Shown here piece by piece: positions 10,985-25,721 of a stretch of DNA of 64,000 bases (within the stretch, counting starts at the first letter, position 1; each line of letters begins with the position of its first letter). Below the pieces are notes generated by a model. That model saw nothing but the letters and a program-made list of their open reading frames with translations, was not told the DNA's origin and ran no database searches. The position numbers were made by a program, and so were the translations under genes. The stretch is from the NCBI RefSeq assembly GCF_038624605.1, contig NZ_CP152020.1, positions 682,001 through 746,000 of the forward strand. Reading direction: 5' to 3'. This DNA comes from Psychrobacillus sp. FSL K6-4046. GTDB taxonomy: Bacteria > Bacillota > Bacilli > Bacillales_A > Planococcaceae.

Positions 10985-11734
10985 ATGCTTTTGTCCATCA
11001 TTCATGGCCTCTTCAAATCAAAACAGAATAAAAGAAAGCTAGAATTTGGGACAATGGCTGGCGATGAGGAGGCAATCAATGACCTCCTCTTAGCCAATAC
11101 CTCCTTTATAAAGAAAACGGCAGCTTACATTTGCAAGCGGCCAATCGATGAACAGGATGAAGAATATAGCATCGCGCTTAATGGATTTCATGAAGCGGTC
11201 CTTGCATTCAATCCTGAGGAAAATGCATCCTTACAAACACTTGCACATCTTATTATAAAAAGGCGACTTGTTGACTTTATTCGAAAGGAAGCTACCCGCA
11301 AGGAAAAGGTGCTTCTACTCCAAACGGGGACTACCGAGGATAGAATAGACGAGCAGCATTATATATGGAACGAGCAATCCATTGAATCATACACAGAAGA
11401 ACAGCGAGCGGAAGCAAGAAGAGAGGAACTGGTCCGTTATGGGGAGCTGCTAGCAACTTATAACTTGTCATTTGATGAGTTGACGGCTTCAGCACCAAAG
11501 CACAAGGATACACGGAAAACTGCCTTTCTAGTGGCACAAATTATTTCCGAATCCGAAGAGCTTTACGAGTCCTTTATCCAGCATAAAAAGCTTCCGCTCA
11601 AGAATATCGAAGCACTGGTAGATGTATCGCGAAAAACGTTGGAACGGCATCGCAAATATATGATTGCCGTCGTACTGCTACTCAACAGTGACTTCGTTTA
11701 TATAAAAGATTATGTGAAGGGAGAAATCATATGA
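10985..11734 (+). CDS. sigI: RNA polymerase sigma factor SigI
   Basis: 249 residues, the usual length. It follows Bacillus subtilis SigI closely: ICKRPIDEQDEEYSIALNGF in region 2, IIKRRLVDFIRKEA after it, and the C-terminal block VDVSRKTLERHRKYMIAVV followed by a YIKDYVKG ending. SigI directs transcription of cell-wall and heat-stress genes in Bacillus subtilis, such as lytE, mreBH and bcrC. A strong GGAGGG site lies upstream of the ATG. The stop overlaps the rsgI start by 4 bases, the usual arrangement for a sigma factor and its anti-sigma partner. The sigma-I promoter at 9838 suggests positive autoregulation. Confidence 0.96.
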   Translation: MLLSIIHGLFKSKQNKRKLEFGTMAGDEEAINDLLLANTSFIKKTAAYICKRPIDEQDEEYSIALNGFHEAVLAFNPEENASLQTLAHLIIKRRLVDFIRKEATRKEKVLLLQTGTTEDRIDEQHYIWNEQSIESYTEEQRAEARREELVRYGELLATYNLSFDELTASAPKHKDTRKTAFLVAQIISESEELYESFIQHKKLPLKNIEALVDVSRKTLERHRKYMIAVVLLLNSDFVYIKDYVKGEII

Positions 11735-12849
11735 TGCGCAACTTTCGAGGCGTTGTCTGTGAGAAGAAAGATGATTACTATGTCTTTCTCACAAGTGAGG
11801 GCGAATTTCTGCGCGGTACCCCATTGGTTGATGACCCAATGATCGGATCCGAAGCAGAATTTCAATTGCTAGAAGCAAAAGCTCCATTTTTACTGACACA
11901 AATAAAGCCTAAAATTCTAGCCCCAATACTTGTCGCGGCAATTGTTCTCATATTTTGTGTCGCATCTTTGATCCCTCAGCAAACGAGTGCTTATGCTTAC
12001 GTACAATTAGAAGGTGAGCATGCTGTCGAAATCGGTGTAGATGAGGACGGGCAGGTTATTTCACTCCGTTCTCTCGATGAAGACACTCCTATCGATATTA
12101 ATAATTGGGAGGACCTAGCTCTTGCTGCTGTCTTAGTCCACGCAGTCAAGCAGGTAGGAGCAGCTCAGGATGAATTAGTAATCACAACCGTTTATGAGAA
12201 TGAAACCAATCAAGAAGTAAAAGCTCAAGTAAACGAAGCGGTAAAAGAAGTAAAGGCAGTACAACCAAAGCAACATATTAATGTAACAGAAAGCTCTGCA
12301 GAAGAACGCAAAAAAGCAAACGAAAATAACACATCGATTCAAAAGTACAAACAAAAAGAACAACAACCAGTTAAAGAAAACAAAAGCAGTGTAGAACAAC
12401 AAAACAATTCCAGTGTAGATAAACAAAATAAAACCAGTGTAGAACAACAAAATAATTCCAGTGCAAAGCAACAAAAAAAATCCAGTGTAGATGAAAAACA
12501 AAAAAACAGTGTAGAAAAGCAAAAACCAGTCGTTCCAGCTCCATCTCCAGCTGCCACCCAGAAGCCGGAGAAAGAGAAAAAGGAACAACCAAACAAACAT
12601 GAAAATGCATCAAAAAATAAAACTCATAATCCCGAAAACAAACTAAACCATAACCAGTCAAAAGACAAGCCGAAACACTCGAACGACCGTAAACACAAGG
12701 ATGAAAAACAACACCCATCCAGGAACGATCACAAAGGTGTAGGTCCAAAAGACAATAATAAAGGGCACGACAAACCGAAAAACAATCATCACAATGGCAA
12801 CAATCAAGGCAACCACCATAGAGACAAGAATAACAACCATAGGCCATGA
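11731..12849 (+). CDS. rsgI: RsgI-type anti-sigma-I factor
   Basis: 372 residues. An N-terminal RsgI_N domain (residues about 1-55, RGVVCEKKDDYYVFLTSEGE) binds SigI in the cytoplasm. One membrane helix (about residues 66-86) leads to an extracellular segment starting TSAYAYVQLEGEH, equivalent to the conserved periplasmic-type domain of RsgI. The remaining 200 residues are low complexity. They include about six 8-10-residue units such as NNSSVDKQ (residues about 212-262), then an Asn/His/Lys-rich tail with HNGN and HHRDK motifs. Clostridial RsgI proteins carry carbohydrate-binding or enzymatic sensors; here the sensor seems to be a disordered basic tail, which may touch wall polymers. It ends at a strong terminator. 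Confidence 0.93.
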   Translation: MMRNFRGVVCEKKDDYYVFLTSEGEFLRGTPLVDDPMIGSEAEFQLLEAKAPFLLTQIKPKILAPILVAAIVLIFCVASLIPQQTSAYAYVQLEGEHAVEIGVDEDGQVISLRSLDEDTPIDINNWEDLALAAVLVHAVKQVGAAQDELVITTVYENETNQEVKAQVNEAVKEVKAVQPKQHINVTESSAEERKKANENNTSIQKYKQKEQQPVKENKSSVEQQNNSSVDKQNKTSVEQQNNSSAKQQKKSSVDEKQKNSVEKQKPVVPAPSPAATQKPEKEKKEQPNKHENASKNKTHNPENKLNHNQSKDKPKHSNDRKHKDEKQHPSRNDHKGVGPKDNNKGHDKPKNNHHNGNNQGNHHRDKNNNHRP

Positions 12850-12930: not shown

Positions 12931-12946
12931 CGTATAAATGGAGAAG

Positions 12947-13030
12947 CGGTCGGTTTTTTTCGATAATCGGTTGGTTCAGTAACAGAATCGGTCGGTTTTC
13001 CCGAATAATCGGTCGGTTCCAAATACCAAA
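12947..13030. repeat. 21-bp-period array, unit CGGTCGGTT
   Basis: Copies of CGGTCGGTT begin at 12947, 12968, 12989 and 13010, exactly 21 bases apart. The sequence between them varies (TTTTTCGATAAT, CAGTAACAGAAT, TTCCCGAATAAT). It sits between the rsgI terminator and a second hairpin. Confidence 0.85.
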
Positions 13031-13076
13031 TAAATCCCAAGCCCCTTCCATTTCTCTATCCTAATATAATAGCCAC

Positions 13077-13119
13077 AAAAAAAGCAGAAACGCTGTTAGA
13101 TCAGGATTCCTGCTTTTTT
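13077..13119 (+). terminator. Terminator-like hairpin
   Basis: AAAAAAGCAG and CTGCTTTTTT flank a 20-base loop, followed by T. It lies in the region ahead of the exopolysaccharide operon. Confidence 0.55.
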
Positions 13120-13159
13120 GAGGTTAAATTCGAACCATTCCATTTCCTTTATTAACACT

Positions 13160-13184
13160 GTTTCCTTAATAAGGAAACTTTTTT
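13160..13184 (+). terminator. Perfect hairpin with T6 ahead of the pel-type operon
   Basis: GTTTCCTT (13160-13167) pairs with AAGGAAAC (13171-13178) around AAT, followed by TTTTTT. It is a compact intrinsic terminator 85 bases upstream of the first gene, acting either as an insulator or as an attenuator. The region between it and the gene holds a weak promoter candidate, TTGGCA (13212) and TACAAT (13237) with a long 19-base spacer. Confidence 0.7.
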
Positions 13185-13268
13185 AATATGCTTCGAAATA
13201 ATTAAAAGAGTTTGGCATAATTGAATTCGTTTTTCATACAATGAATATTAGCCTAGGAGGTTTATCAC

Positions 13269-14576
13269 ATGATTCCAAATAGTATAAAGGTAACAATTAT
13301 TACATTTTTATCCATAATATTTTTTGTCCAAATTAATTCAGTAGCGTTGGCAGAAAACTCGAGTGAAAAAAATTACTATGTTTCTCCAAAAGGTAAAGAT
13401 GCTAATCCTGGTACTAAAAAGAAACCGTGGAAGACAATACAGCATGCTGCAAAGGTGCTTGAACCCGGTGATACGGTGTTTGTACGAGGAGGGGTCTACT
13501 CCGAATTCATTCATATAACAAAATCAGGCTCTAAAAATCTTGGGAATATCACTTTTCAATCATTTCCAGGAGAGGTGGCCATTCTGGAAGGCAAAAAATT
13601 AACAGTAACATCAGCTAAGAGAGCCTTCTTTTATATAGATAATGCAAGTTATATCCGAATTGAAGGATTTGAGTTAAGAAACCTAAAAACGAGAAAACAG
13701 AATCGATATCCGGTCGGAATACTGGTAAAAGGCGGAAGTAGCAATATTCATCTTTCCGATAATAACATTCACCATATTGAAAATAAATCTCGAAAAGGAA
13801 ATGCGCATGGCATTCTCATTTATGGGAATACCTCCAACGCTATGAGTAGCATTACGGTTAATAACAATGAGATTCACCATCTGAAACTCGGAAGCAGTGA
13901 GGCACTTACCTTTAGTGGGAATATACAACAGTTCGCTATTACGCACAATGAAATCCATCATAATAACAACATTGGAATTGATGTTGCAGGGTTTTACAAT
14001 GCTTGTGAAACAGACGACTGCGTAGATCAAGCGAGAGATGGAATCATCGCAAACAATAAAGTCTATAAAAATAGCTCTAAAAGAAATGTATCATACAAAG
14101 AATATTCAGCTGGTGGAATTTATGCAGATGGTTCTACTCAGCTTACTATTGTAAATAATATAGTAGCTTACAATGATTTCGGAATTGAGCTAGCAAGCGA
14201 GAAGGAAGGAAAAACGTCTAGTGAGATTGATGTGAAAAATAATATTATTTACTCCAATAATGGAGCCGGAATAATTGCGGGAGGGGCAGAAAAAAACAAT
14301 GGAGGTTCGAGCAACAATAACATAGTGAGCAATGTTCTCATGTTTAATGACCAGTCAGATGAAGGCTATGGAGAAATAACGTTGCAATGGAATACAAAAG
14401 AAAACCAAATTTTAAATAATCTAATATACAGCAAGGAAAAAGATGAATACCTCCAAAACTTAGGGGACGACGCAATGAGTAATATTTATCTTAACAACAC
14501 TATTCATTCATTTGAAGAGAAACCTTTTTTCTTTGCACCAGTAACAGCTTTCTTTAAAAACTTACGTTGGTGGTAA
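13269..14576 (+). CDS. Secreted right-handed parallel beta-helix protein
   Basis: 435 residues with a signal peptide (residues 1-28). The mature protein starts KNYYVSPKGKDANPGT with KPWKTIQHAA following, the common opening of DUF1565/parallel beta-helix proteins. Many Asn-rich rungs follow (NNEIHHL, NNKVYKN, NNIIYSN), typical of polysaccharide lyases and C5-epimerases. It has a clear AGGAGG site and its stop is next to the start of the epimerase/PelD gene. By context it is a candidate lyase or modifying enzyme for the exopolysaccharide, in the place that PelA's hydrolase domain takes in Pseudomonas. This is inference; substrate and catalytic residues cannot be assigned from sequence alone. 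Confidence 0.88.
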   Translation: MIPNSIKVTIITFLSIIFFVQINSVALAENSSEKNYYVSPKGKDANPGTKKKPWKTIQHAAKVLEPGDTVFVRGGVYSEFIHITKSGSKNLGNITFQSFPGEVAILEGKKLTVTSAKRAFFYIDNASYIRIEGFELRNLKTRKQNRYPVGILVKGGSSNIHLSDNNIHHIENKSRKGNAHGILIYGNTSNAMSSITVNNNEIHHLKLGSSEALTFSGNIQQFAITHNEIHHNNNIGIDVAGFYNACETDDCVDQARDGIIANNKVYKNSSKRNVSYKEYSAGGIYADGSTQLTIVNNIVAYNDFGIELASEKEGKTSSEIDVKNNIIYSNNGAGIIAGGAEKNNGGSSNNNIVSNVLMFNDQSDEGYGEITLQWNTKENQILNNLIYSKEKDEYLQNLGDDAMSNIYLNNTIHSFEEKPFFFAPVTAFFKNLRWW

Positions 14577-14615
14577 ATGATCTTCTACAATTTGATGGAG
14601 AGGGATGTTATTTAT

Positions 14616-16778
14616 TTGAGAGTTTTAATAACAGGTGGATATGGCTTTATCGGTTCTCATGTAGCCGACCGATATTTTAAAGAAGGCTATGATGTATTTA
14701 TCTTGGATGATTTATCTACCGGAAATAAAGAACATATCAAGTTCAAGCATAAGAGTTATATCGTTTCTGTGGAAGATAAAAAATGTGAAGAAATTTTTCG
14801 TTCGTATCACTTCGATGTGGTCATTCATTTGGCAGCCCAGGTTAGTGTAATGAAATCTATTTTAGATCCAAAACGAGATACAGAAATTAATGCAGTAGGT
14901 TTAGTGAATATATTATCCCTATCTCACAAGTATAAAGTAGGGAAATTTATTTTTGCGTCGTCTGCTGCAGTTTATGGGGCTAATGAACAGCTTCCCTTAC
15001 AGGAAACTAATAGGTGTAATCCTATCTCTCCTTATGGTATGAGTAAGTGGTTAGGAGAATCATATTGTGAAAAATGGCGAGAACTATATAGCTATGAAAG
15101 TGTCGTCTTTCGATTCTCTAATGTGTATGGGCCTCGTCAAGGCAATACAGGAGAAGGTGGAGTCATCTCTACTTTCTTAGAGAGAATAACGGAAGGTAAA
15201 TATTTGGATATTTATGGAGATGGAGAACAAACACGAGATTTCATCTATGTAGGCGATGTTGCAGACGCCATTTATCGGACGTCAAACTCTAATTTAAGTG
15301 GAATTTACAACTTGTCCACGAATAGTGAAATAAGCATAAATGAGTTGGTCGGTTTGATGGAGGAGCTTCATGGAGAAACAGAGGTTGCCTACACTGCTGC
15401 CAAGGAAGGAGACATTCAGCGTTCCTCTCTATCAAATGAAAAGGTAGTAAACGATTTAGACTGGAGCCCAATGTTTAGTATGAAACGGGGTTTGGAGCAG
15501 ACATATGAGTGGATCAAGGATAAAAAAACGAAACAGACGTCCGAAAAAACAGTTACTTCTTCCAAAAAAGCTCCTAGCCTCTTCAAACAATTTCAGCCCT
15601 ATATAGAAAATGTGCTGGTATTCTCTGTGATTGCTTGGTTAACTCTAGCAAACCAAGTGAGCGTCTTGAATATAGTAGACTTTGCCTTATTTTATATATT
15701 AATTATAGGTGTGATTTATGGGAACAGGCAGTCTATTATAGCTGTGTGCCTTTCTATTGGACTCCTCATCTTTGAAAAAATACTTGAAGGTAGAGAATTG
15801 ATCTCCCTTACGTACGATACCTCTTTCCTCTTACAAGTGGCACTCTTTCTATCCATAGGGCTTATTGTAGGCTACTCAATTGAACGAAAGAACAACCTAT
15901 TAAAAGAACAAAAAAGTAAACTGGAGGAGCATGAAGATCGCTATTCTTTTTTAAGTGACATGCATGCAGAGATGAGAGAAGTAAAAAAAGAGCTGCAATT
16001 GCGCGTGCTCAATACAGGAGACGGACTTGGAAAAATACATTATCTCCTGAAAGAGTTAGATACCCTAGACCCTGAACGTATTTATTTGAACAGTATAGAT
16101 GTGCTGCAAAAAATGATGAAGGTAAAAAAAGTGTCTATATATAAGTTTTCGAATGACAATGCCTCCTACAAATTAGTAGCAGATTCAGGCTCCTTTAAAT
16201 CTTCTGCAACTCTGAAGGTAGAAGATGATTATGTTCAGCAAATAGCAAACAAGAAAAGTATTTTTGTGAATAAAACACTCCTCCCCAATGCCCCTTTAAT
16301 GGCTGCCTGCCTGTCAAATGGTGAAGAAAAAATAGCACTTATTACAATTGATGACTTAGAATTCGAGCATATTTCACTTTATCATGAAAACCTATTTAAA
16401 ATTATTACAGAATTGATAGAAGCTGCACTAGTTAGGGCGCTACACTTTCAAAGCCTGTCTGAGCAAGAACATTTTCTGGCGCAGAGTCCAGTATTAAAGG
16501 AATCTGTCTTCCAAAAAATTCTTCAAACGAAAAGAGAAGCATATACCAAATTTCAAATACCATATCTTCTGTTAGAAGGAATGATAAATGAGGAAACCTT
16601 CATTCATGATGTCACAGAAATATCCAAAGAAATTGATGAAACAGATTATATAGGAGAGAGCAACGAGCATCATCTACTAGTTTTGCTTGCTAATACTTCT
16701 AAGCAAGCAGGTGAGCAACTAGTATCCAGGCTAAGTGAAAAAGGCATTGTATTAAAGCTAGTAGAAGGAGAGCTTTAA
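14616..16778 (+). CDS. pelD: UDP-sugar 4-epimerase fused to PelD
   Basis: About 720 residues. Residues 1-305 are a GalE-type epimerase with the NAD-binding TGGYGFIGS at the very N-terminus and the Y140xxxK144 catalytic pair in SPYGMSKW. Four membrane helices follow (about residues 325-420), then a coiled coil, a GAF domain (about 480-620) and a degenerate GGDEF-like domain (about 640-720). That second half is the plan of PelD, the c-di-GMP receptor of the Pel synthase complex. The segment where an inhibitory RxxD site would fall reads D674-ETD, so the arginine appears lost. The start is set at TTG 14616, which begins the family in register after GGAGAGGG; ATG 14577 would add 13 residues. The epimerase probably supplies UDP-GalNAc-type precursor. 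Confidence 0.88.
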   Translation: MRVLITGGYGFIGSHVADRYFKEGYDVFILDDLSTGNKEHIKFKHKSYIVSVEDKKCEEIFRSYHFDVVIHLAAQVSVMKSILDPKRDTEINAVGLVNILSLSHKYKVGKFIFASSAAVYGANEQLPLQETNRCNPISPYGMSKWLGESYCEKWRELYSYESVVFRFSNVYGPRQGNTGEGGVISTFLERITEGKYLDIYGDGEQTRDFIYVGDVADAIYRTSNSNLSGIYNLSTNSEISINELVGLMEELHGETEVAYTAAKEGDIQRSSLSNEKVVNDLDWSPMFSMKRGLEQTYEWIKDKKTKQTSEKTVTSSKKAPSLFKQFQPYIENVLVFSVIAWLTLANQVSVLNIVDFALFYILIIGVIYGNRQSIIAVCLSIGLLIFEKILEGRELISLTYDTSFLLQVALFLSIGLIVGYSIERKNNLLKEQKSKLEEHEDRYSFLSDMHAEMREVKKELQLRVLNTGDGLGKIHYLLKELDTLDPERIYLNSIDVLQKMMKVKKVSIYKFSNDNASYKLVADSGSFKSSATLKVEDDYVQQIANKKSIFVNKTLLPNAPLMAACLSNGEEKIALITIDDLEFEHISLYHENLFKIITELIEAALVRALHFQSLSEQEHFLAQSPVLKESVFQKILQTKREAYTKFQIPYLLLEGMINEETFIHDVTEISKEIDETDYIGESNEHHLLVLLANTSKQAGEQLVSRLSEKGIVLKLVEGEL

Positions 16779-17696
16779 ATGATGTACGTCTATGTAATTT
16801 ACCTTATATTATCGGCTATCATTTTATTTTTCATCACACAGAGAAACGTAAAGGAATGGATACTGAAGATCATAGTTGTCAGTTTTCTACCTGTTATCGG
16901 GTGGCTTTTGCCCATTCAGTGGCCAAAAAGGGCGATAGTAAACAAGGGAGATGAGCTAGATAGCTATATTAATCAGATGAATGAGGATATAGCCTTGGAA
17001 ATATTATTAAGCCAAGAAAAAATAGATAAAGAAAAAGAATTGAATATTGTTCCAATAGAGGACGCATTAGTAATCAGTAATTATACTGCTAGAAGAAAAG
17101 CGATGATTAACGTATTAAAGGAAAATCCACTGGAGTATATGGAGGTTATAAAAACAGCCGTGCTAAATGAGGATCCTGAAACTTCACATTATGCTGTTAC
17201 CGCAGTAATGGAAGTGAAGCGAAAGCTATCCATCGCCATTATGGAGCTTTCGGATGCCTATCATAGTAATAAACAAGATGTCGCAAATGCTATATCGTAC
17301 ACCAATGCTATCAAGTCCTATATGAACAGTGGCTTTTTAGATGAACAGACCCTAAAGAAATATAAGTATTTATATATCGAAGTGTTAGAACAGTTGATAC
17401 TTCATAACGTATCAGAGGAACACATATATAAGGAAAAGTTTAGAGCAGAGGTAGAGATGAAGGAATATTTAGCAGCAGAAACTACATGTAAACAATATCA
17501 GAAGAAGTTTCCAGCCTCTGAAGAACCTTATATTTGTTTCATTGAATTATTTTACACTACTAAATCTTCTATTAAGCTACAAGAAACATTGAATCGATTA
17601 AAAAATTCAACTATCCAATTTTCAAATAGAGGACTTACTATCGTAAGGTATTGGTCGGAAGGATTTGAACATGAAGCTAACAGGGAACTTCTCTAA
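16779..17696 (+). CDS. pelE: PelE-like membrane protein with TPR-like helices
   Basis: 305 residues. Two membrane helices occupy about residues 3-20 and 28-46. They are followed by a cytoplasmic, all-helical, TPR-like domain that includes EDALVISNYTARRKAMINVL and DPETSHYAVTAVMEVKRKLS. This size and layout match PelE of Gram-positive pel clusters, a scaffold that holds PelD, PelF and PelG together at the membrane. A GAAGGAGAG site precedes the double ATG. The stop overlaps the deacetylase gene by 26 bases. The assignment rests on layout and position rather than on a catalytic motif. Confidence 0.82.
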   Translation: MMYVYVIYLILSAIILFFITQRNVKEWILKIIVVSFLPVIGWLLPIQWPKRAIVNKGDELDSYINQMNEDIALEILLSQEKIDKEKELNIVPIEDALVISNYTARRKAMINVLKENPLEYMEVIKTAVLNEDPETSHYAVTAVMEVKRKLSIAIMELSDAYHSNKQDVANAISYTNAIKSYMNSGFLDEQTLKKYKYLYIEVLEQLILHNVSEEHIYKEKFRAEVEMKEYLAAETTCKQYQKKFPASEEPYICFIELFYTTKSSIKLQETLNRLKNSTIQFSNRGLTIVRYWSEGFEHEANRELL

Positions 17697-19506
17697 AAAA
17701 ATATATATCATTTTAATACTAGTCTTATTATTTGGTTTACTCCTTCAATTCGCCCATTCCAAGTTTGTCTTACAATTTCAACAAAATCAAAGCTTGATAG
17801 AGGAAAAGAAAGAGATTATGAAAAACGGCTTTGGTGAACAACAGCCTATTACAAGTGGGGACGCTTATTGTGTTTTCTATGATAAGGCCGATGCCTACAG
17901 TAATAGATTAAAAGCTAATGCGATACAATCTTTGGAATATATGAAAATGAAGACTTTAGAAGTAAATGTGGAGGAAAGATTGGAAGAGTTAAGCAATTGT
18001 AAAGTGGTGATTCTCGCGACAGACAAAATAGGACATTTAGGAGATATAGAAAATGTGGAGCAGTATGTTCATCAAGGTGGATATATTCTTTTCATGTCGG
18101 TCCTAGAGCCTGATGATCATTATCAAATTTTGTACCGTAAAGTTGGAGTCACTTCTTTTCACGATTATATAAACACGAAGGGAATAAAACTAACTTCTAA
18201 CGTGTTGATAGGAGAGAAAGATCTCATAATCGATGATGAATTTATTACTAATACATCCTTAAGTATAGCGCTAGCTGATGAGGCAGAATTATTAGCGAAA
18301 AGTTATCAGGACATTCCACTGTTATGGAAATCGAATTATGGGGAAGGGGCATTTATGAGTTTCAATGGAACCTTACTCCAGGAGAAGATAAACCGCGGCT
18401 TTTTTGTAGGTGCATTAAGCTTGCTAGAGCCCAATTTCATCTATCCAATTTTTAATCTAAAAGTATTTTTCATCGATGACTTCCCTGCACCAATTGTTAG
18501 AGGTACTACGCAGGTTATTTATGACGAATATAAGAAGGATATCCCATCTTTTTATCAGGAAATTTGGTGGCCAGATATGTTGAAAACTGCTAGAGACTAC
18601 GATTTAAAATATACCGGAGCCATCATTGAAACATATAACGATAGAGTAGAGCCTCCCTTCGATAATATAGACGACAAGGATACTCATTACTTAATATCTT
18701 ATGGACGTGAGTTAATAGATAGCGGAGGGGAATTAGGATTCCACGGCTATAATCATCAATCGTTAGTAATGGATAAAGAGGTTTCTAAAGTTTACGGCTA
18801 TAAGGAATGGAAAAAGAAATCTGACATGTTCAAATCCATTCAAGAGCTTGTTACCTATACTAAAAATGCTTTTCCTCAGTACACAGTTACCTCCTATGTT
18901 CCTCCATCCAACACGCTGTCAGTGGAGGGGAGAGAAGCCTTGAAGCTAGCATGGAAGGATTTAACGGTTATCTCTTCCTTATACCCTCAGGATGGAGAGG
19001 GAGTGGCCTATGTCCAGGAATTCGAAGTAGCGGATGATGGGATTATCGAGATGCCACGAGCAACCTCTGGCTATTATGAGAAGGTTTATGATCGTTGGGC
19101 AGAGGCGAATACAATGACTGGAGTCGGTGTATTTTCTCACTTTGTTCATCCAGATGACGTTATTAGTGAAGACCGAAGCAACAACATGGGATGGGAACAA
19201 AATTATGAGCTTTTTAATGAGTATATGAGTCGGGTTCAGCATACGTATCCATGGGTTCGGGCTTTGCCTGCAACTGAGGCTGCTTTGGATATGGCGAAGA
19301 GTATCTACTCCCATGTTACTTGGAGTCATAGTGAATATGCGATAGAGGGTCACGTGACCAATTATCGTTCAGAATCCTTTTATGTATTTAGGACGACAAG
19401 TAACATAAAGGGCTTAACCAACTGTACTGTTTTAACTATCGATGAAAACACCTATTTAGTTACTGCCAAAGCTGCTAATTTCAAAATAGAACTGGAGGAA
19501 GCTTGA
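17671..19506 (+). CDS. PelA-like membrane-anchored polysaccharide deacetylase (DUF2194-like)
   Basis: About 611 residues. An N-terminal membrane anchor (about residues 8-30) is followed by a flavodoxin/Rossmann-like segment (about 60-240) and a deacetylase domain. The metal site of CE4-like or PelA-type deacetylases is visible: D269-D270 in FFIDDFPAP, H358 and H362 in FHGYNH, and FSHFVHPDD further on. The N-terminal glycoside hydrolase domain of Pseudomonas PelA is absent. This equals the deacetylase-only PelA of Gram-positive pel clusters. It should remove acetyl groups from the polymer outside the membrane, making it cationic. The start is ATG 17671, with CGGAAGGA 7 bases upstream; TTG 17665 is worse placed. 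Confidence 0.88.
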   Translation: MKLTGNFSKKIYIILILVLLFGLLLQFAHSKFVLQFQQNQSLIEEKKEIMKNGFGEQQPITSGDAYCVFYDKADAYSNRLKANAIQSLEYMKMKTLEVNVEERLEELSNCKVVILATDKIGHLGDIENVEQYVHQGGYILFMSVLEPDDHYQILYRKVGVTSFHDYINTKGIKLTSNVLIGEKDLIIDDEFITNTSLSIALADEAELLAKSYQDIPLLWKSNYGEGAFMSFNGTLLQEKINRGFFVGALSLLEPNFIYPIFNLKVFFIDDFPAPIVRGTTQVIYDEYKKDIPSFYQEIWWPDMLKTARDYDLKYTGAIIETYNDRVEPPFDNIDDKDTHYLISYGRELIDSGGELGFHGYNHQSLVMDKEVSKVYGYKEWKKKSDMFKSIQELVTYTKNAFPQYTVTSYVPPSNTLSVEGREALKLAWKDLTVISSLYPQDGEGVAYVQEFEVADDGIIEMPRATSGYYEKVYDRWAEANTMTGVGVFSHFVHPDDVISEDRSNNMGWEQNYELFNEYMSRVQHTYPWVRALPATEAALDMAKSIYSHVTWSHSEYAIEGHVTNYRSESFYVFRTTSNIKGLTNCTVLTIDENTYLVTAKAANFKIELEEA

Positions 19507-19508
19507 GC

Positions 19509-20936
19509 GTGAAAATATGTCTGATAGCCGAAGGGTCATATCCTTATGTAAACGGAGGGGTATCAAGCTGGATTCATAGTCTAGTCACAGAAATGCCGGA
19601 GCATGAATTTATCATTTATGCTATTGGAGCAGAAACAAAGCAAAAGGGAAAATATAGGTACACACTTCCAGCTAATTTAATTGAGGTGAAAGAAATCTTC
19701 CTAGACGAGTATTTATACGAAGAAAAGAATTGGGGAAGAAGATATAAGCTTACGGATAAGGAAAAGAATAATCTTGTGGCACTTATAACTGGCAGTAAGG
19801 ACATAAACTGGAGTGAACTATTTGACCTTCTAAGGAGCAAAAAATTTGAGAATGTTGGTGAGTTCCTTTCAAGCAAGGATTACTTCGACCTAATCGAATT
19901 CTTAGCAGGGGAGACATATAGCAGGGTACCCTTTACGGAGTTATTTTGGACAGTGAGGTCTATGATTCTACCTTTGTTCTTAACGATTCGTCATGATATG
20001 CCAGAGGCGGACGTCTATCACGCAGTATCAACCGGCTACGCTGGAGTGGTTGGAACTTTAGCGAAGCATGTGCATCAAAAGCCGCTTCTGCTCACGGAGC
20101 ATGGTATTTATTCGAGAGAGCGAGAAGAAGAAATTATAAAAGCGGACTGGGTAAAGGGGTACTTTAAAGACTTATGGATTAATTATTTCTATACATTATC
20201 TAATTCCATTTACGAGGCAGCCGACCAGGTAATTACTTTGTTCGATCGAAATAAGGAAATTGAAGTAGAGCTGGGGTGTCCAGAAGAGAAAATAGTCATC
20301 ATACCGAATGGAGTGGAAATATCTAGCTATAGTGACTTACAAGGAGCAGAAGATGAAGATGTCCTGCGTATTGGCGCAATAGTTCGTTTAGTACCTATTA
20401 AAGATATCAAGACAATGATTCAAAGCTTTGGATTAATAGAAAAAGAAATATCCAATGTAGAATTATTTATCATGGGACCAACCGACGAGGATGACATGTA
20501 TTATAGGGAATGCCTCCAGATGGTAAACACTTTAGGGATTAAACGAATTATCTTTACAGGAATGGTAGACGTAAAAGAGTATGTAGGGAAAATGGATATT
20601 CTTCTGTTAACCAGTATTAGTGAGGGGCAGCCATTGGCTATATTGGAGGGCTTGGCAAGTAAGAAGCCATTCGTCGCAACGAATGTAGGGGGATGTAAGG
20701 AGCTAATATTAGGCAGTAAGGGAGATAACTATGGTCAGGCTGGTTTTATAGCATCCGTCATGAATTATGAGGAAATAGCCAGCTATATTCTTCAGCTTTG
20801 TAACGATAAAAAACTGAGAGAAACAATGGGAAGCAATGGTTTTAATCGTGTGAAAAATAACTACAAGCGAAGTAGTTTCATCACAGGTTATAGGGAACTT
20901 TATTTGTCAGTAGGAGGAGTGGCATGGCAGGCATAG
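19509..20936 (+). CDS. pelF: PelF-like GT4 glycosyltransferase
   Basis: About 475 residues with no membrane segment. The N-terminus CLIAEGSYPYVNGGVSSWIH is the typical PelF opening, a GT-B glycosyltransferase fold. The nucleotide-sugar-binding half carries GAIVRLVPIKDIKTMI and the E-x7-E motif EGQPLAILE at about residue 372. PelF polymerises nucleotide sugars, UDP-GalNAc or GlcNAc type, at the cytoplasmic face and passes the chain to PelG. GGAGG lies 4 bases from a TTG at 19503 and 10 bases from GTG 19509; GTG is preferred here but not proven. It overlaps both neighbours, so translational coupling is likely. Confidence 0.93.
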   Translation: MKICLIAEGSYPYVNGGVSSWIHSLVTEMPEHEFIIYAIGAETKQKGKYRYTLPANLIEVKEIFLDEYLYEEKNWGRRYKLTDKEKNNLVALITGSKDINWSELFDLLRSKKFENVGEFLSSKDYFDLIEFLAGETYSRVPFTELFWTVRSMILPLFLTIRHDMPEADVYHAVSTGYAGVVGTLAKHVHQKPLLLTEHGIYSREREEEIIKADWVKGYFKDLWINYFYTLSNSIYEAADQVITLFDRNKEIEVELGCPEEKIVIIPNGVEISSYSDLQGAEDEDVLRIGAIVRLVPIKDIKTMIQSFGLIEKEISNVELFIMGPTDEDDMYYRECLQMVNTLGIKRIIFTGMVDVKEYVGKMDILLLTSISEGQPLAILEGLASKKPFVATNVGGCKELILGSKGDNYGQAGFIASVMNYEEIASYILQLCNDKKLRETMGSNGFNRVKNNYKRSSFITGYRELYLSVGGVAWQA

Positions 20937-23900
20937 GCTTTGAGCTTAGAAAGCTGTTCAAAGAGGAAGGCATTGTCCAAAATTTAAAAGCCTATGGATA
21001 TTCCTCCTTTACGACGATTGGACCAATGATTCTTTGTATTGTTTTAGTATTTATACAGCAAAACATGATCACGAAGAATGGTGGTAAACCATTTGACAAT
21101 GAATTGTTCATCTCAACGATGACCTACTGCTTTATTTTTTCTATTCTAGTGACATCTGGATTAGCGATGGTATTAACTAGATTCATAGCGGATAGTATTT
21201 ATGAACGGAAGCTGAAGAAAATCATTTCTTCCTTTTACGGAGCACTTATTATTATCTTACCGTTTGCAGGGATGATTGCAGGAGTGTTTCTTTATGGGGT
21301 TTCAGCAGGCTTGGCCTTTAAAATAGCTGCCTACTTATTTTTTATCGAGCTAGTCATTATATGGGTGCAGGGGATTTATCTCTCTGCTTTGAAGGATTAC
21401 AAGCGTATTGTGAGAAGCTTTACAATTGCCATCCTTACTTCCATGGCGATCAGTTATTTGCTGTTTACCTTAACGGAGATTAACCTCACCACTATTGCAT
21501 TGATAGGAATGGACATCGGCTTTGCGATTTTTGTAGGAATGACTATGTACCATTTTGAGCAGGTGTTTCCAAGAGACGAAGAGAACAGTTACTTTTCCTT
21601 TCTCCGTTACTTCCAAAAGTTTCCTTCCGTCTTTTTGAGTGGAATCTTTTTATATGCGAGCGTATACGTTCATAATATGATCTATTGGTTTTTTTCAGGA
21701 AATCATCTATTGGTTGCCGATCGATTTCGGTTAATGCCCTTTTATGATTTACCTGTGTTTTATGCGTATCTAACAGTGGTACCATCCCTGGTGATGTTTG
21801 TAGTTATCGTAGAAACGGATTTTTATGAGAAATTCTTAAACTTTTATAAAAATATTATAGACGGTGGAACATTTAACAGTATTCAAATAGCGAAAAAAGA
21901 AATGCAAAATGTATTGTTTTTAAGGATTGGATTTGTAGTAGAGGTACAGCTTGTATTTACAGCTCTGTCCATTGCATTAGGTTTAATCTATCTACCAAGG
22001 ATAGGATTTTCTATGGAGCAGCTAGATTTGTTTATCTTCTTATGTCTAGGTTATTTTTTCTATATTATTGCCTTTATTGTAATCCACGCGCTCATGTATT
22101 TTGATGACCGTAAGGGAGTGTTGTGGATCAGCGCTTTATTATTTTTCTCTAATGCAATCCTTACGTATGTATCCATGAATATGGGTATTGATGGACTCGG
22201 TATATTCATCGCTGCGTTTGTAACCCTTGTCGTAGCAATCGCTCGACTACTCTATATGCTTTCTAACCTATACTATTACACGTTTTGTTCCCAGCCAATA
22301 ACCACACAGAAAAAGAAGCTTAAAGCCTCGAAAGGTATTATAACGATGCTGCTAATTGCTTCGATTATTTTAGCTGGTTGTACAGAGAGTAAGAGCGAAC
22401 AAGAAGAGAACGTTGTTCAGGAAACTCCAGCTATTGTGCAGGACAACACAAAGGATTCAAAGTTGGTGGAGGATAAGCGGCTATATGAAAGAGATGTAGA
22501 TAGCTCGATTAAGTCGTTGTATATCACAGTCTTACCTGAAGATAAGCCTAAAGAGGAAGCATTAGATTGGTACAGTTTAAATAGACTAGAGGACCGATAT
22601 AGTGAAGAAAAATTAGAGGTTATTTTTGCTGAGGGAACAGAAGACGGGGCAGGCTCAAAGGAAGGCATGTTCGGTCACGGAGCAGTTGAGGCAAACGCCA
22701 ACATAAGCCTAAGAGGGAACACCGCAAGATATGCTGCGCAAAAGTCTTATAAGATTAAGCTTTATGATAACGCTGGTTTGTGGCAAAACCAGCGTATTAT
22801 CAATTTGAACAAACACATATTGGATCCGAGTCGGCTGAGAAATAAATTAAGCTTCGATGTAATGGAAAATATAACGAATTTAACGAGCCTCCGAACGCAA
22901 TTTGTTCATCTTTATGTAAAGGACCTAACAGCTGGAGAACAAGCAAAGTATGAGGACCATGGTTTATATACACACGTAGAGCAGCCAAATGAGATGTTTT
23001 TAAAAAACCATTGGCTTGACCCTAATGGTCAACTTTATAAGGTTAATTTCTTCGAATTCGGTCGATATGCTCAGCAAATTAAATCACAGAATGACCCTAC
23101 CTATGATAAAAAAGCATTTGAAACAATATTAGAGATTAAGGGCAGGGAAGAGCATGACAAATTAATCGATATGTTAAATGACATAAACAATATGAATATC
23201 CCAATAGAGGAAACAGTGGAGAAGCATTTTGACTTGGACAATTTCTTAACCTGGACCGCAGTGAATATACTAATGGACAATATGGATACAGATGCTAACA
23301 ATTTCTATTTATATTCCCCTTTGAACTCGGAGAAATGGTACATACTCCCTTGGGATTATGACGGAGCGTGGGAATACCAAAGAGAAAAAAATTATATAAG
23401 ACCTTACCAGGCAGGTATTAGTAATTACTGGGGAAGTCTCTTGCATAATAGATATTTTCGGACAGAAAAGAACGTTCAGCAGCTTACTGACAAGCTGGAG
23501 GAGCTTTCGGAAATCATTAACGAAGAAACAGTGGAAAAGCAAATAAATGAGTATGCTGATTTAATAAAGCCTTTTTTATACCGTAATCCTGATATTCAGT
23601 TTCTACCTGTACCCAATACTCGTTTTGAGGATGAATTACAGAAGATAAAGGAAACACCTTCAAAATCCATGCAAAGATATATAGAAGACCTTGAAAAGCC
23701 GAAGCCCTTTTTTATGAATGAAGTAGAAACGACAAACTCAGAGCTGTTGTTCTCCTGGCAAATATCATATGACCTCCAAATGGATGACATCTTCTATAAA
23801 GTTACTGTAGCAAAAGACCCCAATTTTACAGAAATTGTAGAAGTAAAAGATAAAATTCGTGAAAACTTTTATACAATGAAAAAACCAGAAGATGGACTTT

Positions 23901-24016
23901 ACTTTTGGGAGGTAACAGCTTCAGATTCAAAAGGGAACGTTCAGAGCTCTTTTGAAATGTATATAGATCCAGAAGGAAATGAGTATTTTGGGTTTAGAGA
24001 ATTCGAGGTGGACTAA
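20924..24016 (+). CDS. pelG: PelG exporter fused to CotH-kinase-like lipoprotein-type domain
   Basis: 1030 residues in one uninterrupted frame. Residues 1-455 are PelG: MAGIGFELRKLFKEEG then about 12 membrane helices, the MOP-superfamily transporter of the Pel synthase. A basic loop (TTQKKKLKAS) and a thirteenth helix follow, ending in LAGC at C486, exactly like a lipoprotein signal. Residues about 510-920 form a CotH-like kinase domain (NISLRGNTARYAAQKSYKIK, then NFYLY and PWDYDG with D811 and D813). The C-terminus is a fibronectin-like domain. A standalone CotH lipoprotein seems to have been joined to PelG. CotH enzymes phosphorylate proteins, so it may modify an extracellular partner of the exporter. 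AGGAGG lies 6 bases before the ATG. Confidence 0.9.
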   Translation: MAGIGFELRKLFKEEGIVQNLKAYGYSSFTTIGPMILCIVLVFIQQNMITKNGGKPFDNELFISTMTYCFIFSILVTSGLAMVLTRFIADSIYERKLKKIISSFYGALIIILPFAGMIAGVFLYGVSAGLAFKIAAYLFFIELVIIWVQGIYLSALKDYKRIVRSFTIAILTSMAISYLLFTLTEINLTTIALIGMDIGFAIFVGMTMYHFEQVFPRDEENSYFSFLRYFQKFPSVFLSGIFLYASVYVHNMIYWFFSGNHLLVADRFRLMPFYDLPVFYAYLTVVPSLVMFVVIVETDFYEKFLNFYKNIIDGGTFNSIQIAKKEMQNVLFLRIGFVVEVQLVFTALSIALGLIYLPRIGFSMEQLDLFIFLCLGYFFYIIAFIVIHALMYFDDRKGVLWISALLFFSNAILTYVSMNMGIDGLGIFIAAFVTLVVAIARLLYMLSNLYYYTFCSQPITTQKKKLKASKGIITMLLIASIILAGCTESKSEQEENVVQETPAIVQDNTKDSKLVEDKRLYERDVDSSIKSLYITVLPEDKPKEEALDWYSLNRLEDRYSEEKLEVIFAEGTEDGAGSKEGMFGHGAVEANANISLRGNTARYAAQKSYKIKLYDNAGLWQNQRIINLNKHILDPSRLRNKLSFDVMENITNLTSLRTQFVHLYVKDLTAGEQAKYEDHGLYTHVEQPNEMFLKNHWLDPNGQLYKVNFFEFGRYAQQIKSQNDPTYDKKAFETILEIKGREEHDKLIDMLNDINNMNIPIEETVEKHFDLDNFLTWTAVNILMDNMDTDANNFYLYSPLNSEKWYILPWDYDGAWEYQREKNYIRPYQAGISNYWGSLLHNRYFRTEKNVQQLTDKLEELSEIINEETVEKQINEYADLIKPFLYRNPDIQFLPVPNTRFEDELQKIKETPSKSMQRYIEDLEKPKPFFMNEVETTNSELLFSWQISYDLQMDDIFYKVTVAKDPNFTEIVEVKDKIRENFYTMKKPEDGLYFWEVTASDSKGNVQSSFEMYIDPEGNEYFGFREFEVD

Positions 24017-24723
24017 TGGCAATTGCAAACAAAAGATTTCGACATGAGATGAAGTACTATTTAAACGTATTCGACTATCTGGCCCTTCGACAGAAGGTAT
24101 CATCGATTCTTTCACTTGATAAAAATTCAATCAGTCCTAATGGTTATGGAATACGGAGCTTATATTTTGATGGGATCCATAATCACTCCCTCTACGATAA
24201 AAACAATGGAGTTTTTAATAGAGAGAAGTACCGTATACGAATTTACAACGAAAGCAATGAAAAAATCAGCCTGGAAAGAAAGAGCAAGTATGGTGATTTC
24301 ATATGTAAAGAATCTGCACCTCTTTCACTACGAGAATATGAGGCAATTCTAGCTGGCGAAGTAGACGTACTTGCGAATAAGGACAATGCACTGTTAAAGG
24401 ATTTTTACATGGCATTGAAATACCGAGGATTTAGAGCAAACGTCATCGTAGATTATATTCGTGAGGCATATGTGTACGAGCCAGGAAATGTGCGGATAAC
24501 ATTCGACAAAAGACTTGCAGCAGGCGTTAACACGGTCGATCTATTTGACCCTAATATCATTTTAGAGGAGCCTCTACACCCGGAGCAAACCATTTTAGAA
24601 GTGAAATTCGATCATTTTCTCTCGGACAACATCCGCCAGCTAGTACAGCCAGAAAGATTCGTCCGATCCGCTATTTCCAAATATGTCATTTGTAGAGAAG
24701 TAAACTTTTTGCATTTTAAGTAG
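24016..24723 (+). CDS. VTC-domain protein (polyphosphate-polymerase-like)
   Basis: 235 residues covering one VTC domain: RHEMKYYLNVFDYLAL, then IRSLYFDG, REKYRIRIYNE and KISLERKSKYGDFICKE, which supply the basic tunnel residues of VTC4-type enzymes. VTC proteins make polyphosphate or triphosphate-type products from nucleotides. The start ATG overlaps the stop of the PelG-CotH gene by one base. VTC genes next to CotH and DUF4956 genes recur in bacteria, and the product of that module is not established. Here it is attached to a pel operon. Confidence 0.9.
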   Translation: MAIANKRFRHEMKYYLNVFDYLALRQKVSSILSLDKNSISPNGYGIRSLYFDGIHNHSLYDKNNGVFNREKYRIRIYNESNEKISLERKSKYGDFICKESAPLSLREYEAILAGEVDVLANKDNALLKDFYMALKYRGFRANVIVDYIREAYVYEPGNVRITFDKRLAAGVNTVDLFDPNIILEEPLHPEQTILEVKFDHFLSDNIRQLVQPERFVRSAISKYVICREVNFLHFK

Positions 24724-24827
24724 TAAAAATTAAGAATAATTTCCACTAGCATAGCTCGAGCAGGCTTTTTTCCGCTCAGACGAATGTAGAATTTTATATC
24801 ACTTAAAATAAGTAGCCGAGGAGTAGA

Positions 24828-25511
24828 ATGATGAATGATACCGTAAATTTTCAAGACGTTATAAAAAAGAGCGTTCTTCATCTCGAATCATTTCGTAGTG
24901 TTTCCTATATTGATATTTTTTTAGGCCTAGCCTGTTCCTTTGTTATTGGTATGTTCATCTACTGGATATATAAGAAATTTTTTCGAGGCGTCGTATATAG
25001 CTATAACTACAATGTCTCTTTTGTTTTAATGACGATGATTACCTCTCTAATTATCATGACAATTAGTACTAACATTATTCTATCGCTCGGAATGGTAGGG
25101 GCACTAAGCATAGTCCGTTTCAGAACAGCCGTAAAAGATCCTTTAGATATTGTCTATATGTTTTGGGCGATAGCTGCAGGAATTGCAACAGGAGCAAAAA
25201 TGTACCCATTAGCGATTATAGGTTCCCTAGCATTTGGTATCACCATCGCATGGCTTTCCAAAAAGAAAGTAAGGCACCAAGCATATTTACTAGTCATAAG
25301 GTACACAGACGACGCAACCTATCAGATCCGTGCAGAGCTAAAAAGCTTAGGAGCTAAACTCAAATCCAAATCCGTCCGCAACAACTTCACCGAACAAACA
25401 GTAGAAATCAATCTAAATGACGACAACACAGCCTTCATGAAAACCATAGGGGACATAGAAGGCGTCATCGAATGCTCCTTAGTCAACTACACCGGAGACT
25501 ATGCACAATAA
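24828..25511 (+). CDS. DUF4956 membrane protein
   Basis: 227 residues. Three to four membrane helices lie in residues 25-145, with the conserved core LGMVGALSIVRFRTAVKDP, then LDIVYMFWAIAAGIATG. A soluble ferredoxin-like domain follows (about 150-225). The family often stands beside VTC and CotH genes and its biochemical role is unknown. CCGAGGAG precedes the double ATG. It lies 104 bases after the VTC gene, with no terminator between them, and the operon ends at the hairpin at 25603. Confidence 0.88.
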   Translation: MMNDTVNFQDVIKKSVLHLESFRSVSYIDIFLGLACSFVIGMFIYWIYKKFFRGVVYSYNYNVSFVLMTMITSLIIMTISTNIILSLGMVGALSIVRFRTAVKDPLDIVYMFWAIAAGIATGAKMYPLAIIGSLAFGITIAWLSKKKVRHQAYLLVIRYTDDATYQIRAELKSLGAKLKSKSVRNNFTEQTVEINLNDDNTAFMKTIGDIEGVIECSLVNYTGDYAQ

Positions 25512-25541
25512 TTAGTACAGACTTGTTTTTTTATGAGTTTT

Positions 25542-25576
25542 GTTTTGTTACAGGTGCCTGGCACCTGTAACAAAAC
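25542..25576. repeat. GTGCCTGGCAC palindrome, copy 5 (perfect 35 bases)
   Basis: Arms GTTTTGTTACAGGTGCC and its exact complement surround a central T. It is the longest and most perfect member of the family. Confidence 0.9.
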
Positions 25577-25602
25577 TCCACAACCTATTATCTGTACAAA
25601 CT

Positions 25603-25642
25603 AGCCAATCTAAGTGGAAACACTCCAACTAGATTGGCTTTT
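25603..25642 (+). terminator. Terminator of the pel-type operon
   Basis: AGCCAATCTA (25603) pairs with AGATTGGCT (25631-25639), followed by TTTTG. Confidence 0.7.
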
Positions 25643-25657
25643 GTCAATAACGAAGGT

Positions 25658-25682
25658 GTTACTGGTGCCAGGCACCTGTAAC
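25658..25682. repeat. GTGCCTGGCAC palindrome, copy 6
   Basis: GTTAC and GTAAC arms flank GGTGCCAGGCACC, with one T:T mismatch. It lies about 80 bases from copy 5, with the operon terminator between them. Confidence 0.85.
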
Positions 25683-25721
25683 AATATGTATATAATAATT
25701 CACCCATAAAAACTACTAAAA

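What the first reader, a model, noticed from the sequence alone, without database searches (positions are those of the whole stretch)
13269..25511. Gram-positive Pel-type exopolysaccharide operon with two gene fusions and an extra CotH/VTC/DUF4956 module
Seen: beta-helix protein, epimerase-PelD, PelE, PelA-type deacetylase, PelF, PelG-CotH, VTC and DUF4956 genes in one direction, mostly overlapping, with no internal terminator. Known: Gram-positive pel loci (for example in Bacillus cereus) carry pelD, pelE, a deacetylase, pelF and pelG, often with a separate galE. Inference: this version physically couples precursor supply, synthesis, export and deacetylation, and adds a phosphorylation or phosphopolymer activity. 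I do not know of a described pel locus with this exact content.
Basis: partly seen in the sequence, partly recalled or inferred. Interest (0 to 1): 0.9.

Follow-up and report, generated by a model that had tools for sequence, protein, structure and literature searches.

The report
Pel operon with exporter-kinase membrane polyprotein
A Psychrobacillus-type bacterium carries a known kind of biofilm-sugar gene cluster in which the sugar exporter and an extracellular kinase are made as one protein that seems built to be cut and fat-anchored in the middle, which is unusual and easy to test.

Summary
At 13269-25511 there are eight co-directional ORFs: beta-helix protein, epimerase-PelD, PelE-like, PelA-type deacetylase, PelF, PelG-CotH, VTC and DUF4956. 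Most of this is described: Whitfield 2020 reports epimerase-PelD fusions and a contiguous cotH/polyP-polymerase/DUF4956 set in Gram-positive pel loci. So it is a new variant of a known system.

What I did not find in print is the PelG-CotH fusion. I found it in 54 genomes of Psychrobacillus, Paenibacillus, Brevibacillus and relatives, one clade on the PelG tree. All 54 proteins keep a lipoprotein-type signal at the joint: Cys486 is the only invariant column in linker positions 461-514 and has 0 changes on the tree, against a median of 28. The likely reading is a polyprotein that is lipidated and cut by signal peptidase II into PelG and a lipid-anchored extracellular kinase. Processing is inferred, not shown.

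Strain-specific: of 50 aligned PelD, this one alone lacks the I-site arginine tied to c-di-GMP binding, and its GAF domain is unusually diverged. A same-species genome lacks the whole 12.6-kb block.

The parts
13269..14576 (+). secreted right-handed beta-helix protein, optional member of the operon
   Evidence: Pfam Beta_helix 7e-13; directly upstream of PelD on the same strand in 29 of 62 related loci
14616..16778 (+). epimerase-PelD fusion (SDR epimerase, membrane helices, coiled coil, GAF, degenerate GGDEF); ORF opens at 14577, TTG 14616 is the likelier start
16635..16637 (+). codon 687 of the PelD ORF: Asp where 49 of 50 PelD have the I-site Arg (RxxD)
16779..17696 (+). PelE-like membrane protein
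   Evidence: position and conservation in the loci; no Pfam/NCBIfam match
17665..19506 (+). PelA-type de-N-acetylase
   Evidence: DUF2194 3e-150; B. cereus PelADA structure 9zau E 4e-81, DD, HxxxH and distal H aligned
19503..20936 (+). PelF glycosyltransferase
   Evidence: NF038011 E 6e-111, 372 bits against cut-off 100
20924..22285 (+). PelG exporter half of the PelG-CotH ORF (whole ORF 20924-24016)
   Evidence: PF16933 2e-125; 12 long helices in the model; MATE/MOP fold matches
22310..22381 (+). internal lipoprotein-type signal: K-rich stretch, helix 470-484, lipobox L-A-G-C with Cys486 at 22379-22381
   Evidence: Cys in 54 of 54, only invariant linker column; 0 changes on the tree, median 28
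22466..24013 (+). CotH kinase domain and C-terminal beta-rich domain
   Evidence: CotH 8e-66; 5jd9 CotH 3e-17; model
24016..24723 (+). VTC-domain protein, polyphosphate polymerase homologue
   Evidence: PF09359 1e-30; profile finds Vtc4 3g3q 4e-7
24828..25511 (+). DUF4956 membrane protein (MgtC-like)
   Evidence: PF16316 5e-12; MgtC/SapB model 9e-6, under its cut-off
13023..25656 (.). block absent from same-species genome G011; flanks 96% and 94% identical

Best explanation
This is a Pel-type exopolysaccharide operon of the epimerase-PelD/CotH/VTC/DUF4956 subtype. The epimerase domain supplies UDP-GalNAc, PelF polymerises with PelD and PelE, PelG exports, PelA deacetylates outside. PelG and the extracellular CotH kinase are translated as one polytopic protein. 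The former CotH lipoprotein signal serves as a 13th membrane helix; Lgt then lipidates Cys486 and signal peptidase II cuts before it, so PelG and lipid-anchored CotH are made one-to-one at the export site and then separate. CotH, VTC and DUF4956 form a phosphate-linked accessory module acting on the polymer or on matrix or export proteins; as ATP is scarce outside the cell, polyP made by VTC and moved with the help of DUF4956 is a possible phosphoryl source. Shown: gene content, order, fusion in 54 genomes, invariant lipobox. Inferred: topology, lipidation, cleavage, substrate, donor.
For: Profiles and structures for the parts. Core order in 58 of 62 loci. Fused PelG-CotH in 18 of 24 PelG-bearing genomes among 261 of the family and in 45 of 48 named loci; 54 after removing 9 duplicates. 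Cys486 54 of 54; -1 is A/G in 53 and S in 1; -3 is L/M/I in 52 and A in 2; at least 4 K/R before the helix. 34 of the 54 fit the textbook lipobox L-[AS]-[GA]-C exactly (consensus in PMC9360617, passage). Cys 0 changes, -3 five, -1 nine; median of 52 linker columns 28, on a tree of the PelG domain alone. Cys codon TGT 14, TGC 4 in 18, so the residue rather than the DNA is kept. Internal start is no general route: 6 of 18 have no in-frame ATG/GTG/TTG in the stretch scanned and none has a Shine-Dalgarno match of 5 or more bases. Model: 12 long helices, helix 470-484 ending next to C486, then a disordered stretch. Nine of 14 standalone CotH read have an N-terminal lipobox. Lgt and LspA are encoded.
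Against: No processing data. The model cannot show cleavage and its pTM is 0.52; no membrane-topology program was run. A lipidated but uncut protein would show the same conservation. Five of 14 standalone CotH (L030, L032, L033, L034, L072) have a hydrophobic anchor without a lipobox Cys, so lipidation is not needed by the whole family. Two of 18 genes, this window among them, have a start codon with a 4-base SD-like match near the joint. In S. intermedius the polyP-polymerase deletion kept aggregation, while deletions of cotH and of the MgtC/ACT membrane gene (my equivalent of DUF4956) changed Pel in opposite directions, which does not fit one simple shared pathway. The background rate of internal lipoboxes in other polytopic proteins was not measured (one search failed).
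Confidence: 0.68

Rival explanations
1. PelG and CotH stay joined: the signal helix is only a 13th membrane anchor, perhaps lipidated but not cut, holding the kinase at the exporter mouth.
For: The fused proteins are one clade with no re-split among the 54, as expected if tethering is useful; five standalone CotH have anchors without a lipobox Cys.
Against: An anchor needs no invariant Cys or small -1 residue; Cys had 0 changes while helix columns 470-484 other than -3 had 19-29.
Confidence: 0.22
2. CotH is also made separately by an internal translation start inside the fused gene, so the fusion is partly incidental.
For: Window ATG at -11 and L020 TTG at -14 from the Cys have 4-base SD-like matches.
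Against: 6 of 18 have no internal start codon in the stretch scanned and none has a stronger SD; the window start would lack a charged n-region.
Confidence: 0.06
3. In this strain (a separate question from the fusion) Pel is no longer under c-di-GMP control: PelD's sensor half is relaxed and the locus is either constitutive or being lost.
For: I-site Arg is Asp only here, 1 of 50; alanine at the position I take as equivalent in B. cereus gave no detectable binding and no adherence; GAF dN 0.45-0.50 to three congeners against 0.11 between one congener pair, the largest ratio of the parts compared; same-species G011 lacks the block.
Against: All ORFs are intact, D690 and R718 are kept, 12 GGDEF matches remain in the genome; dS is mostly saturated, so relaxed and positive selection cannot be told apart.
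Confidence: 0.45

Closest known systems
Gram-positive pel locus with epimerase-PelD plus cotH/PPP/DUF4956 (streptococci, clostridia, bifidobacteria; Whitfield 2020, PMC7112168; sections and passages read)
   Same: Epimerase-PelD, PelE, PelADA, PelF, PelG followed by CotH, polyP polymerase and DUF4956
   Different: Here CotH is fused to PelG; epimerase residues are intact in 50 of 50, whereas the paper calls those of streptococci, clostridia and actinobacteria altered; the window has no DUF4832 gene in the operon; a beta-helix gene lies upstream
Brevibacillus pel loci (same paper)
   Same: Epimerase-PelD with apparently functional residues; B. panacihumi and B. invocatus loci L091-L093 have the core operon of this window
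   Different: The text read names no CotH there; in these genomes it lies inside the PelG ORF. Figures were not seen
Bacillus cereus ATCC 10987 pelDEADAFG
   Same: Core functions; PelA matches its solved PelADA
   Different: Separate galE and PelAH beside the operon, intact RxxD; CotH, polyP polymerase and DUF4956 are not listed for it in the text read
Bradyrhizobium FbcH cytochrome b/c1 precursor (recalled; one search did not find a paper on it)
   Same: Polytopic protein joined through an internal signal sequence to an exported domain and cut by a signal peptidase
   Different: Signal peptidase I and a haem protein there; a lipoprotein-type signal here

Membership tests
Gram-positive Pel operon | PelF GT4 polymerase | tested here: met
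   NF038011 372 bits, cut-off 100
Gram-positive Pel operon | PelG MOP-type exporter | tested here: met
   PF16933 2e-125; MATE/MOP fold
Gram-positive Pel operon | PelA deacetylase with DD, HxxxH and distal H | tested here: met
   9zau 4e-81, motifs aligned
Gram-positive Pel operon | PelD: membrane helices, GAF, degenerate GGDEF | tested here: inconclusive
   Compatible secondary structure in the model; profile hits to KdpD membrane part, GAF and GGDEF chains only at E 0.06-0.3; Pfam PelD_GGDEF uninformative
Gram-positive Pel operon | PelD I-site RxxD plus distal Arg for c-di-GMP | tested here: not met
   Window has DxxD; 49 of 50 aligned PelD, the four congeners included, have RxxD. Not essential for the wider family: streptococcal PelD lacks the GGDEF domain and S. 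intermedius makes Pel
Gram-positive Pel operon | PelE | tested here: inconclusive
   Syntenic ORF, no profile match
Gram-positive Pel operon | GalNAc-rich polymer | not testable with these tools
   no product data
Bacterial lipoprotein (CotH half) | Lipobox with invariant Cys, small -1, basic and hydrophobic stretches before it | tested here: met
   54 of 54 have the Cys and A/G/S at -1; 34 fit the strict consensus
Bacterial lipoprotein (CotH half) | Signal at the N-terminus of the translated protein | tested here: not met
   Signal lies at residues 463-486 behind the PelG helices
Bacterial lipoprotein (CotH half) | Lipidation and cleavage | not testable with these tools
   no protein data
CotH kinase | CotH fold and the conserved D/N/WDYD region | tested here: met
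   5jd9 E 3e-17 with that region aligned; D788, N793, D811, D813 invariant in 51; activity not tested
VTC polyphosphate polymerase | VTC domain with conserved charged residues | tested here: met
   PF09359 1e-30; R9, K13, R69, K71, R73, R75, K89, R149, K165, E195, K197, R217, K222 invariant in 29; Vtc4 related at 4e-7; residue-by-residue match to the Vtc4 tunnel and activity not tested

The most novel reading that the evidence does not exclude
PelG-CotH is a self-separating membrane polyprotein: a lipoprotein signal behind twelve membrane helices is lipidated and cut by signal peptidase II, giving exporter and extracellular kinase in fixed ratio at one site. The kinase acts outside the cell on the emerging polysaccharide or its partners, fed by polyphosphate that VTC makes and DUF4956 helps to move out.
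Probability: 0.3. Interest if true: 0.8.

Novelty: new variant of a known kind. Interest (0 to 1): 0.58.

Why it matters
The role of the CotH/VTC/DUF4956 genes in Pel loci is open. The fusion ties CotH to PelG in place and number, and the invariant lipobox says that CotH should end as a lipid-anchored extracellular protein next to the exporter; both are directly testable. A lipoprotein signal inside a polytopic protein is a case that programs looking only at N-termini would miss. It also bears on the published pattern: Brevibacillus, with epimerase-PelD, is not listed with cotH in the text I read, and here its CotH turns out to lie inside the PelG ORF.

Tried and rejected
Known RNA families upstream: none at gathering scores in 9000-30000. 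Frame error or assembly artefact as cause of the fusion: rejected, 54 genomes share it. Several independent fusions: not supported, one change on the tree (quick method, SH-aLRT only, some long split branches). Pfam PelD_GGDEF search: uninformative. The fold check of SDR-PelD was filled by epimerases, so it does not test the sensor half. Search for print: (PelG with CotH and fusion words; polyP polymerase, CotH, pel operon) listed no paper that by title or abstract describes a PelG-CotH fusion; (internal lipobox, signal peptidase II, polytopic) none that by title or abstract describes an internal lipoprotein signal, and passages of PMC8048626 and PMC9360617 do not either. The library is open-access only; figures and supplements of Whitfield 2020 were not seen. 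The FbcH precedent is recalled; one search did not find it. Genome-wide background rate of internal lipoboxes: not done.

Near-identical L091/L092 were both kept. In one search minus-strand rows were translated in the wrong direction; redone. Papers: PMC7112168 sections 6 and 12 (part 1 of 2) and passages; PMC12345266 section 20 and passages; PMC7112194, PMC13254593, PMC8048626, PMC9360617 passages; all others search listing only.

Full report
Observation. The window is from a Psychrobacillus-type genome: contigs of same-genus genomes G001, G006, G010 and G018 have the lengths of named records of P. antarcticus, P. psychrodurans, Bacillus sp. FJAT-22090 DE0292 and P. vulpis. PelE and the PelD half have none; they rest on position, architecture and conserved residues. 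PelA matches the solved B. cereus PelADA at 4e-81 with its DD, HxxxH and distal H motifs aligned.

Known or not. Whitfield 2020 describes Gram-positive pelDEADAFG loci, an epimerase domain on PelD in Brevibacillus, streptococci, clostridia and actinobacteria, and a contiguous cotH, polyP polymerase, DUF4956 and DUF4832 set in streptococci and clostridia (a variant in bifidobacteria) that goes with it. In S. intermedius all core genes are needed for Pel; deletion of cotH lowers Pel, deletion of the MgtC/ACT membrane gene raises it, both lower aggregation in artificial sputum, and deletion of the polyP-polymerase gene keeps aggregation. So the operon content is known. I found no mention of a PelG-CotH fusion in the parts read or in searches.

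Spread. In the family, 24 of 261 genomes have PelG at E <= 1e-30: 18 fused with CotH, 5 with the two genes next to each other (in G031 in one frame with one stop between), 1 with PelG and no CotH. In a phylum sample of 398 genomes 12 match, and of these only the window's own is fused. A scan of named genomes gave 48 loci, 45 of them one ORF, in Psychrobacillus, Rummeliibacillus, Solibacillus, Sporosarcina, Ureibacillus, Brevibacillus, Paenibacillus, Cohnella and Saccharibacillus. That scan used one conserved peptide of PelG and one of CotH, not the joint, but it was built from fused proteins and so favours them. The seven-gene order is kept in 58 of 62 loci, fused or split alike; L094, L100 and L115 reach contig ends and L063 lacks the CotH module. 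The beta-helix gene is directly upstream in 29 of 62. L125 and L129 have PelG/CotH and epimerase/PelD both apart. On a PelG tree of 70 rows the 54 fused proteins are one side of a branch with support 99.

The joint. Between PelG and CotH lie a basic stretch, a hydrophobic helix, a lipobox and a stretch modelled as disordered. In the 54 fused proteins Cys486 is the only invariant position of linker 461-514. Lipoboxes: LSAC 21, LSGC 6, LAAC 4, LTGC 4, LAGC 3, LVGC 3, LTAC 3, ATAC 2, LGAC 2 and six single types. On a PelG-domain tree of total length 16.2 changes per column, Cys has 0 changes, position -3 has 5, -1 has 9, and the 52 linker columns with few gaps have a median of 28. The simplest account is that Lgt and LspA, both encoded, still use this signal. 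Counting 12 long helices in the model puts the PelG C-terminus and the K/R-rich stretch inside, and the 13th helix brings CotH outside; this topology is inferred. Internal initiation is not a general route. Of 14 standalone CotH read, 9 have an N-terminal lipobox and 5 a hydrophobic anchor without the Cys. G160, G162 and L128 have a second, standalone CotH with a lipobox behind the fused gene.

Module. CotH keeps the region aligned to the conserved motifs of 5jd9. VTC keeps its charged residues and is related to Vtc4. The idea that polyP from VTC and DUF4956 feeds the extracellular kinase is mine and untested; the missing aggregation phenotype of the polyP-polymerase mutant in S. intermedius speaks against a strict need.

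This strain. The epimerase residues are intact in 50 of 50 PelD. The I-site arginine is Asp in the window alone; 49 of 50 keep it, and D690 and R718 are kept by all. In B. cereus alanine at R363, D366 or R395, which I take as the equivalents by motif and spacing, gave no detectable c-di-GMP binding and no adherence. Against congener L041, dN of the window is 0.27 for the epimerase, 0.23 for the membrane part, 0.47 for GAF and 0.47 for GGDEF, against 0.105, 0.095, 0.114 and 0.192 between L041 and L042; GAF thus stands out, though this rests on one congener pair and dS is mostly saturated. Same-species genome G011 lacks window 13023-25656, with about 100 other bases in its place and flanks 96% and 94% identical; G002 has at the same place a lone 329-aa epimerase related to the PelD epimerase. 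The operon is a strain-variable block, here possibly freed from c-di-GMP control or on its way out.

Verdict. Observation confirmed, interpretation partly supported. New variant of a known kind, with an unusual and testable membrane polyprotein.

Noticed in passing
25546-25573 and 25657-25684: Two near-identical palindromes of the form TGTTACAGGTGCCWGGCACCTGTAACA; the second sits at the right edge of the block missing in G011, which has such a palindrome there. The exact 23-base core, found in the first copy only, occurs 12 times in the genome, reversed control 0.
   Followed up: partly
12942-13019: Three 21-nt-spaced copies of an ATCGGTCGGTT-type repeat; the left edge of the missing block falls at their end.
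   Followed up: partly
L136 3302-4291: Genome G002 has a standalone epimerase, 72% DNA identity over about 717 bases to the PelD epimerase domain, between the rsgI-like gene and argC, and no PelG match: a possible remnant of the operon.
   Followed up: partly
L125, L129: Paenibacillus plantiphilus and Cohnella xylanilytica have epimerase apart from PelD and PelG apart from CotH in the same locus.
   Followed up: no
L050, L051, L128: A second standalone CotH gene with its own lipobox follows the fused pelG-cotH.
   Followed up: no
10985-12849: sigI/rsgI-like pair upstream of the block; the second protein has a long low-complexity, charged C-terminal tail (names recalled, no profile run).
   Followed up: no
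13269-14576: The beta-helix partner directly upstream is 404-470 aa in 11 of 13 family loci but 678-966 aa in the Paenibacillus, Brevibacillus and Cohnella loci; the extra half of L089 has no Pfam match.
   Followed up: partly
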